Shown: in pieces, positions 34,285-38,732 of the stretch
Position numbering within the stretch: the stretch's first letter is position 1
Layout of the letters: each line of letters starts with the position of its first letter
Assembly (NCBI RefSeq): GCF_000943565.1
Contig: NZ_JTDW01000007.1
Coordinates: 1 to 64,000, forward strand
Source of the DNA: Neotamlana sedimentorum
GTDB lineage: Bacteria; Bacteroidota; Bacteroidia; Flavobacteriales; Flavobacteriaceae
Length of the DNA stretch: 64,000 bases
Direction: 5' to 3'
Translations under genes and position numbers: made by a program
Notes under the pieces: model-generated
What the model was told of the DNA's origin: nothing
Seen by the model: the letters and a program-made list of their open reading frames with translations, nothing else
Databases searched by the model: none

Positions 34285-34671
34285 ATGAAAACTATTTTAG
34301 TTACTTGCGCTATCATTTTAAAAGATGACAAAGTTTTTGCTTTTCAAAGAAGTGAAAAAATGAAGCTACCATTAAAATGGGAATTTGCAGGTGGAAAAAT
34401 AGAACCTAACGAATCAGAAATTGATTGTATTAAACGCGAAATTAAAGAAGAGCTTAATATTGAAATACATGTTAAACAGCGATTAACACCGGTAACACAT
34501 CAATACCCCGATTTTAAAATTAAATTAATTCCTTTTGTAGCTAATTATGTAAATGGAAATTTAATTTTAAGAGAACACGCCTACTTTGTTTTAGCAAAAA
34601 AAGAAGAATTACTAGATTTGGATTGGGCTGAAGCAGATATCCCAATTTTAAAAGAATTTTTATCATTATGA
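34285..34671 (+). CDS. MutT-like Nudix hydrolase
   Basis: A 128-residue Nudix protein of the nucleoside triphosphate pyrophosphohydrolase type. The Nudix box is intact: GGKIEPNES, seven residues, then REIKEELNI, giving the Glu set for Mg2+. The N-terminus VTCAIILKDDKVFAFQRSEK and the WEFAGG segment resemble MutT/CTP-pyrophosphohydrolase relatives. It likely hydrolyses an oxidised or unusual (d)NTP. Its stop overlaps the start of the helicase gene (ATGA at 34668-34671), implying translational coupling. It begins 12 bp after the DUF4421 gene. Confidence 0.92.
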   Translation: MKTILVTCAIILKDDKVFAFQRSEKMKLPLKWEFAGGKIEPNESEIDCIKREIKEELNIEIHVKQRLTPVTHQYPDFKIKLIPFVANYVNGNLILREHAYFVLAKKEELLDLDWAEADIPILKEFLSL

Positions 34672-37600
34672 ATCAAGGAATTTACGAAGCATTAATAACA
34701 CAACTTATAAATGAAAAATTAAATCTTCTTGATGATGAAAAATTTTATATAAAAAAAAATAAAATTGATAAAGAAGAAGCTTCTAGAGTTCTTTCGACAC
34801 ATTTAGCAATAGCTTTCAACAATGCTTTCCAGCTCATTAAAGGTAAGCCTGAATTACAAATTGAGATTTCCAATAAAATTTTAAAACTATTAAAAGAAGA
34901 AATAAACAAGCAAGATTTCGATTGCGATTTAATTGATGCAGAAGGCGAAATTCTGAAAGCTGTATTCAGTAAAGTAGATTCAAGTTACACTGATTTAGAT
35001 TTAAGACTAAAAGAAATAACACCCTACACAAGACTAACACATAGCGAGTTATTTACTGGTGGGAATTCTGGTTTATCCTTAGAAAGTGAACTAAAAAAAG
35101 AAATTTTATCCGCAGATCAAATTAACCTATTAGTTTCATTTATAAAATTTAAAGGAATCATAATTCTTGAAAAAGAACTTCGAGAATTTACAGAACGAGG
35201 GGGAAAACTCAAGGTCATAACCACAACGTATGTTGGCGCAACTGATTATAAGGCGGTGCAGTTATTATCAAAACTTCCCAATACTGAAGTAAAAATATCG
35301 TACAATACAAGTAACGAAAGGTTACATGCTAAAGCTTACCTGTTTTATCGAAACTCAGAGTTTCATACTGCATATATTGGATCTTCAAATTTTTCCCGAT
35401 CTGCATTAACAGATGGACTAGAATGGAACTTAAAAATTACAACTAAAGAAGTAAACCACGTTATTAATAAATTCCAAAAAACATTTGATGCCTATTGGCA
35501 CAGTGAAGATTTTGAAATTTTTGATGATGCTATACATAAAGAAAAACTACAAAGTGCACTTAAGTATAGTAAGTTTAGTAAACCGCAAGAAATAAATACA
35601 ACATTTTTTGACATAAAACCTTTTCCTTATCAAAACGAAATTTTAGAAAAACTAGAAGTTGAAAGAGAAACACACAATCACTATAGAAACTTGGTTGTGG
35701 CCGCAACAGGCACAGGTAAAACAGTTATTTCAGCATTCGACTACAAACGTTTTAGACAAAACAATTCTTCTGCAAAGTTGTTATTTCTGGCACATAGAAA
35801 AGAAATAATACAAAAATCATTATCTACTTTTCAAAGTATCTTAAAGAATAATAATATTGGCGAATTATGGGTTGATGGTTTAGTTCCAGATAATTTTGAA
35901 ATCGTATTTGCATCCGTACAATCTGTAAAAAATCAATATAAAAACTACAACCTAAATCCGGATTTTTACGATTTCATTATCATAGATGAATGTCACCATC
36001 AAAAAGCGAATAGTTACCGAAAATTAATAGACTATTTTCAACCGAAAATTTTACTTGGTCTTACAGCAACACCTGAAAGAATGGATGGGGAAAATATCCT
36101 TGAAGATTTTGATAATAGGATTGCCGCAGAAATAAGATTACCAGAAGCAATGAATAGAAAGTTACTCTGCCCATTTCAATATTTTGGAATAACCGACAGT
36201 GTTGACTTAACGAATATTACATGGGCTAGAGGAAAATATGTTGCTAGTGAATTAACAAATTTATACACTGAAAACGATAGAAGAGTTAGTGAAGTAATTA
36301 ACGCACTCGAAAAATATACTAAAGACAGCCGTGAAGTAAGAGCATTAGGTTATTGTGTTTCCATGGAACACGCTAAATATATGGCAGAAAAATTTTCACT
36401 AGCAGGATTTAAAGCCGATTATTTAACCAGCAACAATAGCAAAGACAGAGATTTAATTAGAATAAAGTTAGAAAAAAGAGAAATCAACTATCTGTTTGTT
36501 ATTGATATGTTTAACGAAGGAATTGACATTCCTGAAATTGACACTTTACTTTTTTTAAGACCAACAGAAAGTTTAACTATATTTTTACAACAACTTGGTA
36601 GAGGATTGAGACTTCATGAAGAGAAAGACTGTTTAACCGTTTTAGATTTTGTCGGTAATTCTAAACCAGAATATAATTTTGAGCACAAGTTTAGAGCATT
36701 AATTGGTAAAACAAATACTACTGTAAAAAAAGAAGTTGAAGACGATTTTCCTCATCTTCCTTTAGGCTGCTCTATCATTTTAGAAAAAAAGACAAAAGAA
36801 ACAATTCTTAAAAATATATCAGCTGTAACATCATTAAACAAAACCAAACTAATTCAAAGAATACAACAATTTCAAAACGAAACACATTTACCATTAACAA
36901 TAGGAAACTTTAGCACATTTTATAATATTCCAATTCAATATATTTATAAAAGAGGAAGTTGGAAACGTTTATGTCAGTTAGCAGGAAAAATAGAAAATTT
37001 TAATTCGATAAACGAAAAAGATATTGTTTCAGCCATTTTAAACAAATGGATGTCTACAAATTCATTAAGTTATTTCTCTTTCATTTTAAAAATTGCAAAA
37101 CAGAATTTTATGGTAAATATTTCAAATTTAAATGACAATGAAAAAACCATGCTTTTAATGTTGCATTATGATATTTGGCAGAAAGAAGGTGGTTTTGATT
37201 CTTTAGAAAAAAGCATACATCAAATAGGAACTAACCCCATTTTAGTTGAAGAAATAAAGGAAGTTTTAGAGTTTTTAATAAATAAAATAGACTTTAAAGA
37301 GCTACCAATTAAACTTCCTTACAAACAACCTTTAAAATTACATAATCGCTACACAAGAGACCAAATTTTAGCTGCATTTAAATTTAGTAGTTTTAGCAAA
37401 AAATCATCTAATCGAGAAGGAACTGCATTGAATAAAGACTTAAATACTGAATTACTTTTTATCAACCTTATAAAATCTGACGAAAACTTTTCACCAACTA
37501 CGATGTATGATGATTATGCAGTAAATGAATTACTATTTCATTGGCAAACGCAAAACTCTGCAAGACCCGATAAAGGAAAAGGACTGTCCTATATAAAACA

Positions 37601-37802
37601 CCAAGAAGAAAATAAACGAATCTTACTTTTTGTTCGTGAAAAAGCAAAAGATGAATTTGGCAACACAAAAGGTTACGTTTTCATCGGTGAAGGAAATTTA
37701 AAAGACTATTATGGTTCAAAACCCATGAGTATAAATTGGGAATTAAACGAACCTATGCCAAACTATCTTTGGAAAGATGCTGCAAAACTTTCTGTAGGAT
37801 AG
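34668..37802 (+). CDS. PLD-nuclease/DEAD-box helicase/DUF3427 protein
   Basis: A 1044-residue multidomain protein. Residues 1-115 are an unassigned N-terminal part. Residues about 120-285 are a phospholipase D-like nuclease domain with one HKD-type site (H220, K222, then GSSNFS 238-243). Residues about 315-690 are a superfamily 2 helicase: Walker A AATGTGKT (345-352), DECHH (440-444), LTATPER, FNEGID and QQLGRGLR (641-648). The C-terminal 150 residues have the DUF3427 pattern (LLFVREKAKDEFG, YVFIGEGNL, PMSINWELNEPMP). Single HKD sites in PLD nucleases usually need dimerisation. It is coupled to the Nudix gene by a 4-bp overlap. It reads more A-rich than its neighbours, suggestive of transfer. 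Confidence 0.92.
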   Translation: MNQGIYEALITQLINEKLNLLDDEKFYIKKNKIDKEEASRVLSTHLAIAFNNAFQLIKGKPELQIEISNKILKLLKEEINKQDFDCDLIDAEGEILKAVFSKVDSSYTDLDLRLKEITPYTRLTHSELFTGGNSGLSLESELKKEILSADQINLLVSFIKFKGIIILEKELREFTERGGKLKVITTTYVGATDYKAVQLLSKLPNTEVKISYNTSNERLHAKAYLFYRNSEFHTAYIGSSNFSRSALTDGLEWNLKITTKEVNHVINKFQKTFDAYWHSEDFEIFDDAIHKEKLQSALKYSKFSKPQEINTTFFDIKPFPYQNEILEKLEVERETHNHYRNLVVAATGTGKTVISAFDYKRFRQNNSSAKLLFLAHRKEIIQKSLSTFQSILKNNNIGELWVDGLVPDNFEIVFASVQSVKNQYKNYNLNPDFYDFIIIDECHHQKANSYRKLIDYFQPKILLGLTATPERMDGENILEDFDNRIAAEIRLPEAMNRKLLCPFQYFGITDSVDLTNITWARGKYVASELTNLYTENDRRVSEVINALEKYTKDSREVRALGYCVSMEHAKYMAEKFSLAGFKADYLTSNNSKDRDLIRIKLEKREINYLFVIDMFNEGIDIPEIDTLLFLRPTESLTIFLQQLGRGLRLHEEKDCLTVLDFVGNSKPEYNFEHKFRALIGKTNTTVKKEVEDDFPHLPLGCSIILEKKTKETILKNISAVTSLNKTKLIQRIQQFQNETHLPLTIGNFSTFYNIPIQYIYKRGSWKRLCQLAGKIENFNSINEKDIVSAILNKWMSTNSLSYFSFILKIAKQNFMVNISNLNDNEKTMLLMLHYDIWQKEGGFDSLEKSIHQIGTNPILVEEIKEVLEFLINKIDFKELPIKLPYKQPLKLHNRYTRDQILAAFKFSSFSKKSSNREGTALNKDLNTELLFINLIKSDENFSPTTMYDDYAVNELLFHWQTQNSARPDKGKGLSYIKHQEENKRILLFVREKAKDEFGNTKGYVFIGEGNLKDYYGSKPMSINWELNEPMPNYLWKDAAKLSVG

Positions 37803-37871
37803 TGCAAATAAATTCAAAAAACACCAGATTAATTAATCATTCAAAAGCATATATTTATAAAAACATTCATC

Positions 37872-38732
37872 TTGAAACACAAAACTTCTATAACAGGTTA
37901 TTACATCCAAAAGTCAATTTTCTTATTAATAACATTAGCACTTTTACTCGTTTTAAGCTGCTCCGAAAACATATATCAAGAATCTAAAAAAGCATATAAA
38001 AAGCAAGTCAAAACTTTAGGTAAAAGCTTAAGAAATATTCAGCCAGATTCTATAAACAATCAAGCTTTTAATGTTATAGAATCGCAAAACTTTAGTTTAC
38101 GCAAGCCTAATTTCATTATAATTCATCACACCGACCAAGAAAGCTGCGAACAAACCTACCGAACCTTTGCTTTACAACGCACCCAAGTTAGTTCGCATTA
38201 TGTAATTTGTGATGATGGCACCATTACCCAAATGCTTAACGATTTACTTCGCGGTTGGCATGCCGGAAATTCTACCTGGGGCAATGTAACCGATGTAAAC
38301 AGTGTTTCTATTGGCATTGAGCTCGATAACGATGGCGAAGAACCATTTTCGTACGCCCAAATAAACAATTTAACTTGGCTATTAAAAAACCTAACCGAAA
38401 AGTATAAAATACCAAAACAAAACATAATTGGTCATGCCGATATTGCTCCAGGACGAAAAGTAGACCCAAGCGCTTTATTCCCTTGGAAAACCCTTGCCAA
38501 AAGTGGTTATGGTATTTGGTACGACGAAACCAAACTAGATTCAGTAGTTATCGATAGTGCCTTCAACCCTAAAAAAGCATTAAAATTTATTGGCTACAAC
38601 ATTAGTAATCTTGAAAATGTTATTTATTCGTTTAAGCTTCATTTTAACCCGAGTGATGTATCGAAAACACTTTCCGAGAAGGATAAAAAAATATTGATTT
38701 TACTTGAAGATGAAATTTTAAAACTTAAATAA
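37872..38732 (+). CDS. N-acetylmuramoyl-L-alanine amidase, lipoprotein
   Basis: A 286-residue lipoprotein with an Amidase_2 (AmiD-like) domain. The zinc set is visible: IIHHTD near residue 80 and GHADIAPGRKVDPS later, with the active centre HAG in between. It cleaves the amide bond between muramic acid and L-Ala of peptidoglycan. The frame begins with TTG at 37872; an in-frame stop lies upstream and no ATG precedes the domain. TTG gives a clean lipoprotein signal (KHKTSITGYYIQK, hydrophobic run, LVLSC). It lies 69 bp after the helicase gene. Confidence 0.9.
   Translation: MKHKTSITGYYIQKSIFLLITLALLLVLSCSENIYQESKKAYKKQVKTLGKSLRNIQPDSINNQAFNVIESQNFSLRKPNFIIIHHTDQESCEQTYRTFALQRTQVSSHYVICDDGTITQMLNDLLRGWHAGNSTWGNVTDVNSVSIGIELDNDGEEPFSYAQINNLTWLLKNLTEKYKIPKQNIIGHADIAPGRKVDPSALFPWKTLAKSGYGIWYDETKLDSVVIDSAFNPKKALKFIGYNISNLENVIYSFKLHFNPSDVSKTLSEKDKKILILLEDEILKLK

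What the first reader, a model, noticed from the sequence alone, without database searches (positions are those of the whole stretch)
34285..37802. Coupled Nudix hydrolase and PLD-nuclease/SF2-helicase/DUF3427 pair
Seen: a MutT-like Nudix gene overlaps by ATGA the start of a 1044-residue protein with a single-HKD PLD nuclease domain, an SF2 helicase and a C-terminal DUF3427 domain. The pair sits between unrelated housekeeping genes, on a more A-rich segment than its neighbours. Known: PLD nucleases plus SF2 helicases recur in restriction-like defence, and Nudix enzymes remove damaged or signalling nucleotides. Inferred: a two-gene nucleic acid defence or repair unit in which the Nudix enzyme clears a modified nucleotide or a signal and the helicase-nuclease acts on DNA. 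This is the best candidate here for an undescribed system, though related pairs may already be catalogued.
Basis: partly seen in the sequence, partly recalled or inferred. Interest (0 to 1): 0.7.

Follow-up and report, generated by a model that had tools for sequence, protein, structure and literature searches.

The report
Restriction enzyme with nucleotide-cleaning partner
This bacterium carries an enzyme that most likely shreds foreign DNA bearing modified cytosines, made together with a small enzyme whose relatives destroy the free modified-cytosine building blocks, which may keep the cell's own DNA from becoming a target.

Summary
In detail: a 128-aa Nudix gene overlaps by ATGA a 1044-aa PLD-nuclease/SF2-ATPase/DUF3427 protein. 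The large protein is a SauUSI-like type IV restriction enzyme: best PDB match SauUSI, catalytic residues intact, predicted C-terminal SRA fold, the fold that reads 5-methyl- and 5-hydroxymethylcytosine. That half is known. The Nudix link is the interesting part: 51 distinct pairs, 49 within 18 bp, both gene orders, correlated divergence, no such link for HsdR. S. aureus SauUSI has a related Nudix one base upstream. Related Nudix genes also precede, and once are fused to, unrelated HNH nucleases of modification-dependent type. [quoted passage not shown] Best explanation: the Nudix clears modified dCTP from the pool, so the host does not write the nuclease's target into its own DNA; this role is inferred. 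The pair is not obligatory: 0 of 20 gammaproteobacterial homologues examined have it, and in this genus the Nudix persists where the nuclease is broken, absent or replaced. The one mention of the adjacency that I found in print is a figure legend. New variant of a known kind.

The parts
34285..34671 (+). Nudix hydrolase, PDC-S07 / NudG-like; Nudix box GKIEPNESEIDCIKREIKEELNI
34668..34671 (+). 4-bp ATGA overlap of the Nudix stop and the nuclease start
   Evidence: same 4-bp overlap in 22 of 51 pairs
34668..37802 (+). SauUSI-like type IV restriction enzyme, called type A here (1044 aa)
35169..35498 (+). PLD nuclease domain (aa 168-277); HxK at aa 220-222 = 35325-35333
35613..36614 (+). SF2 ATPase (aa 316-649): Walker A GTGKT 348, DECH 440, TATPER 466, QQLGRGLR 641
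37002..37778 (+). DUF3427 match (aa 779-1037): by comparison with SauUSI, rear part of the helical coupler plus target recognition domain
   Evidence: domain layout of SauUSI from PMC7913695 passages
37305..37799 (+). C-terminal SRA-like target recognition domain (aa 880-1044); D949 and W959 match SauUSI D858 and W868, T919 stands for Y831
34670..37955 (.). stretch between the flanks shared with sister genomes: here the nuclease, missing in G002, another gene in G003

Best explanation
A two-gene type IV restriction unit. (1) The large protein is a SauUSI-like nuclease. Its SRA-type C-terminal domain most likely flips out and binds a 5-substituted cytosine in incoming DNA, its SF2 motor translocates, and a PLD active site formed by two subunits cuts the DNA to pieces. 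[quoted passage not shown] Such nucleotides can arise when methylated DNA is broken down and salvaged, or are made by some phages. Without the Nudix, the polymerase would put them into the host chromosome and so write the nuclease's own target there. The Nudix would therefore be an immunity factor that acts on the DNA precursors, whereas an ordinary methylase acts on the DNA. Shown here: domain architecture, intact catalytic residues, predicted SRA fold, recurrent tight pairing, correlated divergence, pairing with a second unrelated nuclease family and one fusion. Shown in papers for relatives, not for these proteins: m5C/hm5C-dependent cutting by SauUSI; 5-Me-dCTP and 5-hydroxymethyl-dCTP hydrolysis by 3GWY. 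Inferred: the substrate of this Nudix and its self-protection role.
For: Nuclease: mREase_IV 745.9 bits; SauUSI 7clg E 6.9e-80 by sequence and first by fold, E 3.8e-42; the C-terminal domain alone (pLDDT 88.6) finds SauUSI, SUVH6, AbaSI, SUVH5, MspJI, KRYPTONITE, PvuRts1I, ScoMcrA, TagI and UHRF1 as ranks 1-19, the first five at E<=0.001. Nuclease and ATPase residues invariant in 51 of 51 pairs; D949 in 50, W959 in 49. Pairing: 19 of 44 genomes, a 20th (G098) below the Nudix cut-off; 51 distinct pairs, 49 with gap <=18 bp, 22 with the same 4-bp overlap, 44 Nudix-first and 7 nuclease-first; distances correlate (Spearman 0.54, 0 of 2000 permutations as high). S. aureus: one base lies between the Nudix and SauUSI ORFs. 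Second nuclease: Nudix directly before an HNH nuclease with a weak SRA match in 14 of 16 viral loci, mostly near-copies, before it on two Priestia plasmids, fused on a Paenibacillus plasmid. Chemistry: 3GWY kcat/Km 4.8e6 (5-Me-dCTP), 4.4e6 (5-hydroxymethyl-dCTP) M-1 s-1 (PMC5158307 passages); SauUSI cuts m5C and hm5C, not m4C (PMC3874153 passages); [quoted passage not shown] 5-Me-dCTP is incorporated by a DNA polymerase like dCTP (PMC10742078 passages).
Against: The pairing is far from universal: 25 of 44 Bacteroidota genomes (24 with G098 added; some matches end at contig edges, so absence is not proven for all) and 20 of 20 gammaproteobacterial loci have the nuclease without an adjacent Nudix. 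In the genus the Nudix is kept without a working nuclease, so it has a use, or little cost, on its own. Window-type enzymes have V, A or T where SauUSI has methyl-contacting Y831, so their target may differ. C5-methylase genes are not depleted in carriers: 17 of 44 against 152 of 351, p 0.63. The window Nudix is 37% identical to the 3GWY segment and fails NCBIfam's NudG equivalog cut-off (86.8 of 156 bits). It is not adjacent to McrBC, another m5C-dependent enzyme (0 of 5 rows). Ten of 13 opened plasmid regions with the HNH nuclease lack the Nudix.
Confidence: 0.55

Rival explanations
1. Offensive pool poisoning: the Nudix destroys hydroxymethyl- or methyl-dCTP made by phages with modified genomes, so that new phage DNA is starved or unmodified, while the nuclease cuts what is already modified.
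For: 3GWY accepts 5-hydroxymethyl-dCTP as well as 5-Me-dCTP (PMC5158307 passages); the pair is carried on plasmids and on records filed as phage, some of which may be host DNA.
Against: Taking the modification away would hide the phage from a nuclease that needs it. Nudix genes of this kind also sit at housekeeping-like places away from the nuclease.
Confidence: 0.18
2. Plain housekeeping: a NudG-type mutation-avoidance enzyme that happens to be a neighbour; the linkage reflects shared mobility or convenient expression.
For: NudG-like genes lie away from the nuclease in many Bacteroidota; the Nudix survives loss of the nuclease in this genus; it is this genome's only match of that kind at E<=1e-18.
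Against: 51 tight pairs in both orders, link to two unrelated nuclease classes, one fusion; 0 of 74 HsdR rows linked; the unpaired genus copies are nested among paired ones.
Confidence: 0.15
3. The Nudix is a regulatory or structural subunit of the nuclease, or senses a nucleotide that signals infection.
For: Translational coupling and a fusion suggest matched amounts and closeness.
Against: The catalytic Nudix box is intact in 51 of 51 pairs; SauUSI is active alone in vitro and in E. coli (PMC3874153 passages). No complex was predicted here.
Confidence: 0.07
4. It clears another oxidised or signalling nucleotide, such as 8-oxo-dGTP or ADP-ribose, to help recovery after DNA cutting.
For: The family is sometimes annotated MutT, for example on a Priestia plasmid.
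Against: Below the MutT equivalog cut-off (64.6 of 97.9 bits); the two top PDB relatives are 5x1x, by eye the SauUSI-linked S. aureus Nudix, and the 5-substituted-dCTP enzyme 3GWY.
Confidence: 0.05

Closest known systems
SauUSI (type IV restriction enzyme of Staphylococcus aureus, PDB 7clg)
   Same: PLD nuclease, SF2 ATPase, coupler, SRA-type recognition domain; D858 and W868 kept; the S. aureus gene also has a Nudix directly upstream
   Different: 91 aa longer than the 953-residue chain, most of it an extra N-terminal part (the profile match starts at 130 here, 30 in SauUSI); Y831 replaced by T (V, T or A across type A); the window matches PADLOC model PDLC03659 best, type B protein L007 matches PDLC03658 best
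Q5LBB1_BACFN / PDB 3GWY, 5-Me-(d)CTP and 5-hydroxymethyl-dCTP pyrophosphatase
   Same: Same Nudix subfamily; its nearest relatives among the loci held (50-53%) are Nudix genes next to type B nucleases, plus L124 next to a type A one
   Different: 37% identical to the window Nudix; the genomic neighbour of 3GWY itself could not be checked
E. coli NudG (Orf135)
   Same: 5-Me-dCTP hydrolase with the Nudix box, 38% identity to the window Nudix
   Different: The window Nudix scores far below the NudG equivalog cut-off; the E. coli neighbourhood was not examined here
TagI / SRA-HNH modification-dependent nucleases
   Same: TagI reads m5C and hm5C through an SRA domain (PMC6212794 passages); HNH proteins that match this kind carry the same Nudix as neighbour or fusion
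   Different: Unrelated nuclease, no ATPase; not in this window
PADLOC PDC-S07
   Same: The window Nudix matches it, 157 bits
   Different: The model carries no description; that it is a single-gene candidate is recalled

Membership tests
SauUSI-like type IV restriction enzymes | PLD nuclease with HxK motif | tested here: met
   PLDc_2 46 bits; H220, K222 in 51 of 51
SauUSI-like type IV restriction enzymes | SF2 ATPase with Walker A, DExH and motif VI | tested here: met
SauUSI-like type IV restriction enzymes | SRA-fold target recognition domain at the C-terminus | tested here: met
   predicted model, pLDDT 88.6; ranks 1-19 are SRA-bearing proteins, best E 7.7e-05
SauUSI-like type IV restriction enzymes | cytosine-reading Asp and stacking Trp (D858, W868) | tested here: met
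   D949, W959 by profile alignment; 50 and 49 of 51
SauUSI-like type IV restriction enzymes | methyl-contacting Tyr-831 (a specificity residue; I do not count it as defining the family) | tested here: not met
   T919 in the window; Y in 13 of 51, the 13 type B pairs
SauUSI-like type IV restriction enzymes | cleaves m5C/hm5C DNA with ATP | not testable with these tools
   needs biochemistry
NudG equivalog (NF007834, PRK10546) | score above the curated cut-off of 156 bits | tested here: not met
   86.8 bits; so not filed as NudG, only as working like it
MutT equivalog (TIGR00586) | score above the curated cut-off of 97.9 bits | tested here: not met
   64.6 bits
5-substituted-dCTP Nudix pyrophosphatases | intact Nudix box | tested here: met
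   51 of 51 pairs
5-substituted-dCTP Nudix pyrophosphatases | hydrolysis of 5-Me-dCTP / 5-hydroxymethyl-dCTP | not testable with these tools
   published only for relatives
RadD repair helicase (NF053632) | score above the curated cut-off of 720 bits | tested here: not met
   120 bits
Type I HsdR, EcoAI type (NF046051) | score above the curated cut-off of 550 bits | tested here: not met
   115.3 bits

The most novel reading that the evidence does not exclude
Many type IV restriction enzymes, including the textbook SauUSI, are not single-protein systems but nuclease-plus-pool-sanitiser modules. A 5-methyl/5-hydroxymethyl-dCTP pyrophosphatase acts as an antitoxin on the precursor pool and stops the cell from building the nuclease's own target into its chromosome. 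The same solution arose more than once (SauUSI-like types A and B, HNH nucleases, a fusion, possibly a MazG-type enzyme with a DUF2075 helicase).
Probability: 0.4. Interest if true: 0.8.

Novelty: new variant of a known kind. Interest (0 to 1): 0.62.

Why it matters
Type IV restriction enzymes attack modified DNA and have no methylase partner, so self-attack through modified nucleotides in the precursor pool is a possible hazard. If the Nudix is their guard, it would explain why a relative of a 5-methyl-dCTPase is encoded beside so many SauUSI-like enzymes, give PDC-S07 a function, predict toxicity when it is removed, and suggest co-expression when these enzymes are used as tools. The idea can be tested with purified proteins and E. 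coli K-12.

Tried and rejected
Rejected: an undescribed helicase-nuclease. RadD or HsdR identity (below cut-offs). A signalling system in the sense of PMC7159879: in the passages seen, its Nudix text concerns NAD/ADPr effectors and its DUF3427 text a helicase of another system. Avoidance of C5-methylases by carriers: not seen, 17 of 44 against 152 of 351 (the 17 matched by eye); a contrast within the window's family, noticed after the fact (type A carriers 1 of 6), was not followed and is not used. The obligate two-gene unit: rejected by unpaired homologues and the genus-mates. PDC-S41 as a regular Nudix partner: 1 of 22 genomes, the G168 fusion (coordinates compared by eye; neighbours of the loci).

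Led nowhere: finding the genomic neighbour of 3GWY itself (best identity 52-53% among 8 and 86 genomes). A viral scan with a type B protein (none). The viral scan with A1 returned 34 loci, of which I examined two: L296 has the Nudix, L297 does not. Not tested: defence-island enrichment, complex prediction.

Counting rules: adjacency used at most 600 bp between match ends. In one search I kept nuclease ORFs of at least 850 aa and gaps <=350 bp, and dropped only loci whose nuclease ORF was identical over residues 201-400, so some pairs are close relatives; the broken-frame pair of G001 is among the 51. In one search, L118, which has only a partial Nudix match upstream, is not among the 28; L173 is, at 2.2 kb. 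Of 46 plasmid records with an HNH match I opened 13: three have the Nudix (two adjacent, one fused); L331 was judged by annotation alone. Of 20 plasmid records with the nuclease I opened 7: four have the Nudix; one of these (L264) was opened because of its Nudix hit, and the S. aureus 'plasmid' (L268) looks chromosomal. The type A/B split is mine. The Nudix tree rests on 130 columns and many forks are unresolved.
Full report
What is there. The window is G000:C50:1-64000 of a 3.96-Mb genome in 51 contigs. The Nudix matches PF00293 and PF14815, PADLOC PDC-S07 at 157 bits and, below its cut-off, the NudG model (86.8 of 156 bits). The large protein has PLDc_2, ResIII, Helicase_C and DUF3427 and matches PADLOC mREase_IV at 745.9 bits. 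Both genes have lower GC and more A than the four neighbours measured.

The nuclease is SauUSI-like. The closest solved sequence is SauUSI, 7clg (E 6.9e-80 for the protein; 1.3e-138 for the profile A1), and 7clg is also the best fold match of the full model (E 3.8e-42; the whole superposes poorly, rmsd 16). From passages of PMC7913695, SauUSI is nuclease, ATPase, helical coupler and SRA recognition domain. The last 165 residues of the window protein, predicted alone (pLDDT 88.6), have only SRA-bearing proteins in ranks 1-19, including SauUSI, SUVH6 with methylated DNA, AbaSI, MspJI, PvuRts1I, ScoMcrA, TagI and UHRF1; five of these matches have E<=0.001, and ranks 15-19 lie at E 0.03-0.1. In the alignment the paper's pocket residues D858, W868 and F841 fall on D949, W959 and F931 (counted by hand). 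In 51 aligned pairs these are D in 50, W in 49, F in 46; the methyl-contacting Y831 is Y in 13, the type B pairs, and V, A or T in 37, including the window's T919. So reading of a flipped cytosine is likely, but window-type enzymes may accept another or a bulkier 5-substituent.

Site history. At the same place in three genus-mates the Nudix is always present, the nuclease not. G001 aligns at 94.7% over 12.4 kb but its nuclease frame is broken near codon 30. In G002 the alignment breaks at the Nudix stop codon and resumes at 37956, with no nuclease. In G003 the slot holds a convergent 654-aa SLFN-g3-type helicase, PADLOC PDC-S41. In the Nudix tree the solo copies of G002 and G003 lie inside a clade of paired copies, that of G002 with G001 (100/90), so the nuclease was probably lost or replaced there. 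Among 21 other family members searched only G005 has a strong match, of a divergent type.

The pairing. In 395 Bacteroidota genomes 44 carry mREase_IV at E<=1e-40 and 64 a close Nudix at E<=1e-18; 24 carry both (Fisher p 2.9e-10, relatedness not corrected), and in 19 the Nudix lies directly upstream on the same strand. G098, just below the Nudix cut-off, also has it. The 8 genomes of that sample whose near full-length nuclease I class as type B all do; shorter rows I did not class. As a control, HsdR has 0 of 74 rows within 600 bp of the Nudix, nearest 1496 bp (a fragment in G144), and McrBC 0 of 5, nearest 5270 bp. In 80 named loci from genome contigs, the best 80 of 583, the Nudix is the most frequent neighbour, 28 of 80, the next cluster 8 of 80; it stands upstream in 21, downstream within 272 bp in 6, and 2.2 kb away in one. 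None of the 20 gammaproteobacterial loci has it adjacent. Over the loci held there are 51 distinct pairs: 31 type A Nudix-first, 7 type A nuclease-first, 13 type B Nudix-first; 49 have gaps of 18 bp or less and 22 the same 4-bp overlap; pairwise distances correlate (Spearman 0.54 overall, 0.62 type A, 0.91 type B; 0 of 2000 permutations as high; shared ancestry of the genomes is not removed). The Nudix tree needs 13 changes of the type A label, at least 9 forced by well-supported branches.

The prototype has it too. In a Staphylococcus aureus record one base lies between the Nudix ORF and the SauUSI ORF, which is itself broken further on in that record. By eye against the protein is SauUSI, and by eye against the Nudix is PDB 5x1x, the best PDB match of the window Nudix. 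In the phages collection, 6 of 8 records with the Nudix also carry the nuclease; some may be host DNA. Plasmids of Hymenobacter, Lactiplantibacillus and Latilactobacillus carry the pair; opened plasmids of Peptoclostridium, Neotabrizicola and Spiroplasma carry the nuclease alone.

A second, unrelated nuclease. A viral-contig scan with the 3GWY segment gave 13 loci. In 12 the Nudix is followed by an HNH gene of about 272 aa, whose frame looks broken in L262; L256 is cut by the contig end. The product has a clear HNH domain, a weak SAD_SRA match below Pfam's cut-off (21.3 of 30.7 bits), a PADLOC mREase_IV match over the HNH part, and PDB matches to 5-methylcytosine-specific McrA, ScoMcrA and TagI over the HNH part. 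Searching from the nuclease side gave 16 loci, 14 with the Nudix directly upstream; most are near-copies on the contigs already seen. Two Priestia plasmids have the Nudix overlapping this nuclease by 4 bp. A Paenibacillus polymyxa plasmid encodes one 487-aa protein with HNH 303-353 and NUDIX 361-477, its front part matching the same nuclease at 31%. Ten further opened plasmid regions with the HNH nuclease show no Nudix.

Chemistry of relatives. In passages of PMC5158307, Q5LBB1 of Bacteroides fragilis (3GWY) has kcat/Km 6.7e6 for 5-Me-CTP, 4.8e6 for 5-Me-dCTP, 4.4e6 for 5-hydroxymethyl-dCTP and 8.5e4 M-1 s-1 for 5-OH-dCTP, with much lower activity on canonical NTPs. 3GWY is the second PDB match of the window Nudix (E 1.9e-20), and its nearest relatives among the loci held, 50-53% identical, are Nudix genes next to type B nucleases plus L124 next to a type A one; the viral HNH-linked Nudix genes found later are 46-51% identical to it. 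E. coli NudG prefers 5-Me-dCTP to CTP (passages). In passages of PMC3874153 SauUSI cuts m5C and hm5C DNA but not m4C. So the modifications destroyed in the pool by the Nudix subfamily are those cut in DNA by the nuclease family. [quoted passage not shown] In passages of PMC10742078, 5-Me-dCTP is incorporated like dCTP by a polymerase and may come from degraded methylated DNA.

How it most likely works. The nuclease needs a 5-modified cytosine and has no methylase. Any 5-Me-dCTP or 5-hydroxymethyl-dCTP in the pool would be built into host DNA at random and make it cleavable. The Nudix, translated with the nuclease, removes it. This explains the tight coupling, the pairing with two kinds of modification-dependent nuclease, the fusion, and the substrate match. 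It does not by itself explain the many unpaired homologues; these may rely on an unlinked NudG-like gene, have different targets, or not need it. I put about 0.9 on type IV restriction, 0.75 on the substrate class, and 0.55 on the whole.

Literature. Searches of the open-licence library: DUF3427, SauUSI (52 papers, 40 listed), Nudix with type IV restriction, PDC-S07 (6 papers, passages of one seen), NudG or 5-methyl-dCTP, 5-methyl with MutT2, a six-term mix (31 papers, 15 listed), 5-methyl-dCTP with McrBC and SauUSI with MutT. Most listed papers I saw only as listings. In what I opened there is one mention of the adjacency: the legend of Fig. 9 in PMC7641849, for Streptococcus, with no function in the passages seen. 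The main text of the 2021 SauUSI paper does not contain the words nudix or MutT. The 2011 SauUSI paper is not held. So the adjacency is in print; the functional proposal and the link to two nuclease classes I did not find. Most subscription papers and bioRxiv preprints are outside that library.

Noticed in passing
L070:6803-8767 (+); L209:4128-6497 (-): A SLFN-g3 (PDC-S41) helicase fills the nuclease slot beside the Nudix in genus-mate G003; in G168 a Nudix domain is fused to the N-terminal side of a SLFN-g3 helicase (790 aa). Only 1 of 22 PDC-S41 genomes in the 395 shows such a link.
   Followed up: partly
L332:6727-8807; L337:4501-6554: A small 'nucleotide pyrophosphohydrolase' (MazG type by my reading) lies directly next to a DNA/RNA or DUF2075 helicase on two Lactobacillaceae plasmids, in one behind a Nudix-SauUSI pair; two other opened plasmids lack it. 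Possible second pool-cleaning partner.
   Followed up: partly
L007:118-3447 (-): A type B SauUSI-like protein carries a C-terminal Peptidase_S24 match after DUF3427; role unknown.
   Followed up: no
L068 / L006 (G001): The nuclease frame of the sister genome is broken near codon 30 while the Nudix is intact.
   Followed up: partly
L186:9122-9958 (+): The Nudix ORF downstream of a SauUSI-like gene is 278 aa; its second half reads like a GNAT acetyltransferase (by eye from the DNA).
   Followed up: no
L265:6998-10499; L338:310-2905: Nudix genes of this subfamily lie 0.4-1.3 kb from DUF262/GmrSD-type genes on Selenomonas and Lactobacillus plasmids.
   Followed up: no
L117, L123, L130, L134-L136, L164, L189: An HNH_2 endonuclease gene cluster (Pfam tested on L117 only) is the second most frequent neighbour of the nuclease, 8 of 80 loci.
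   Followed up: no
window 34285-37802 in G000: The host genome has no C5-methylase at E<=1e-25, no HsdR_N or McrBC at E<=1e-10, and only one Nudix match of this kind at E<=1e-18.
   Followed up: no
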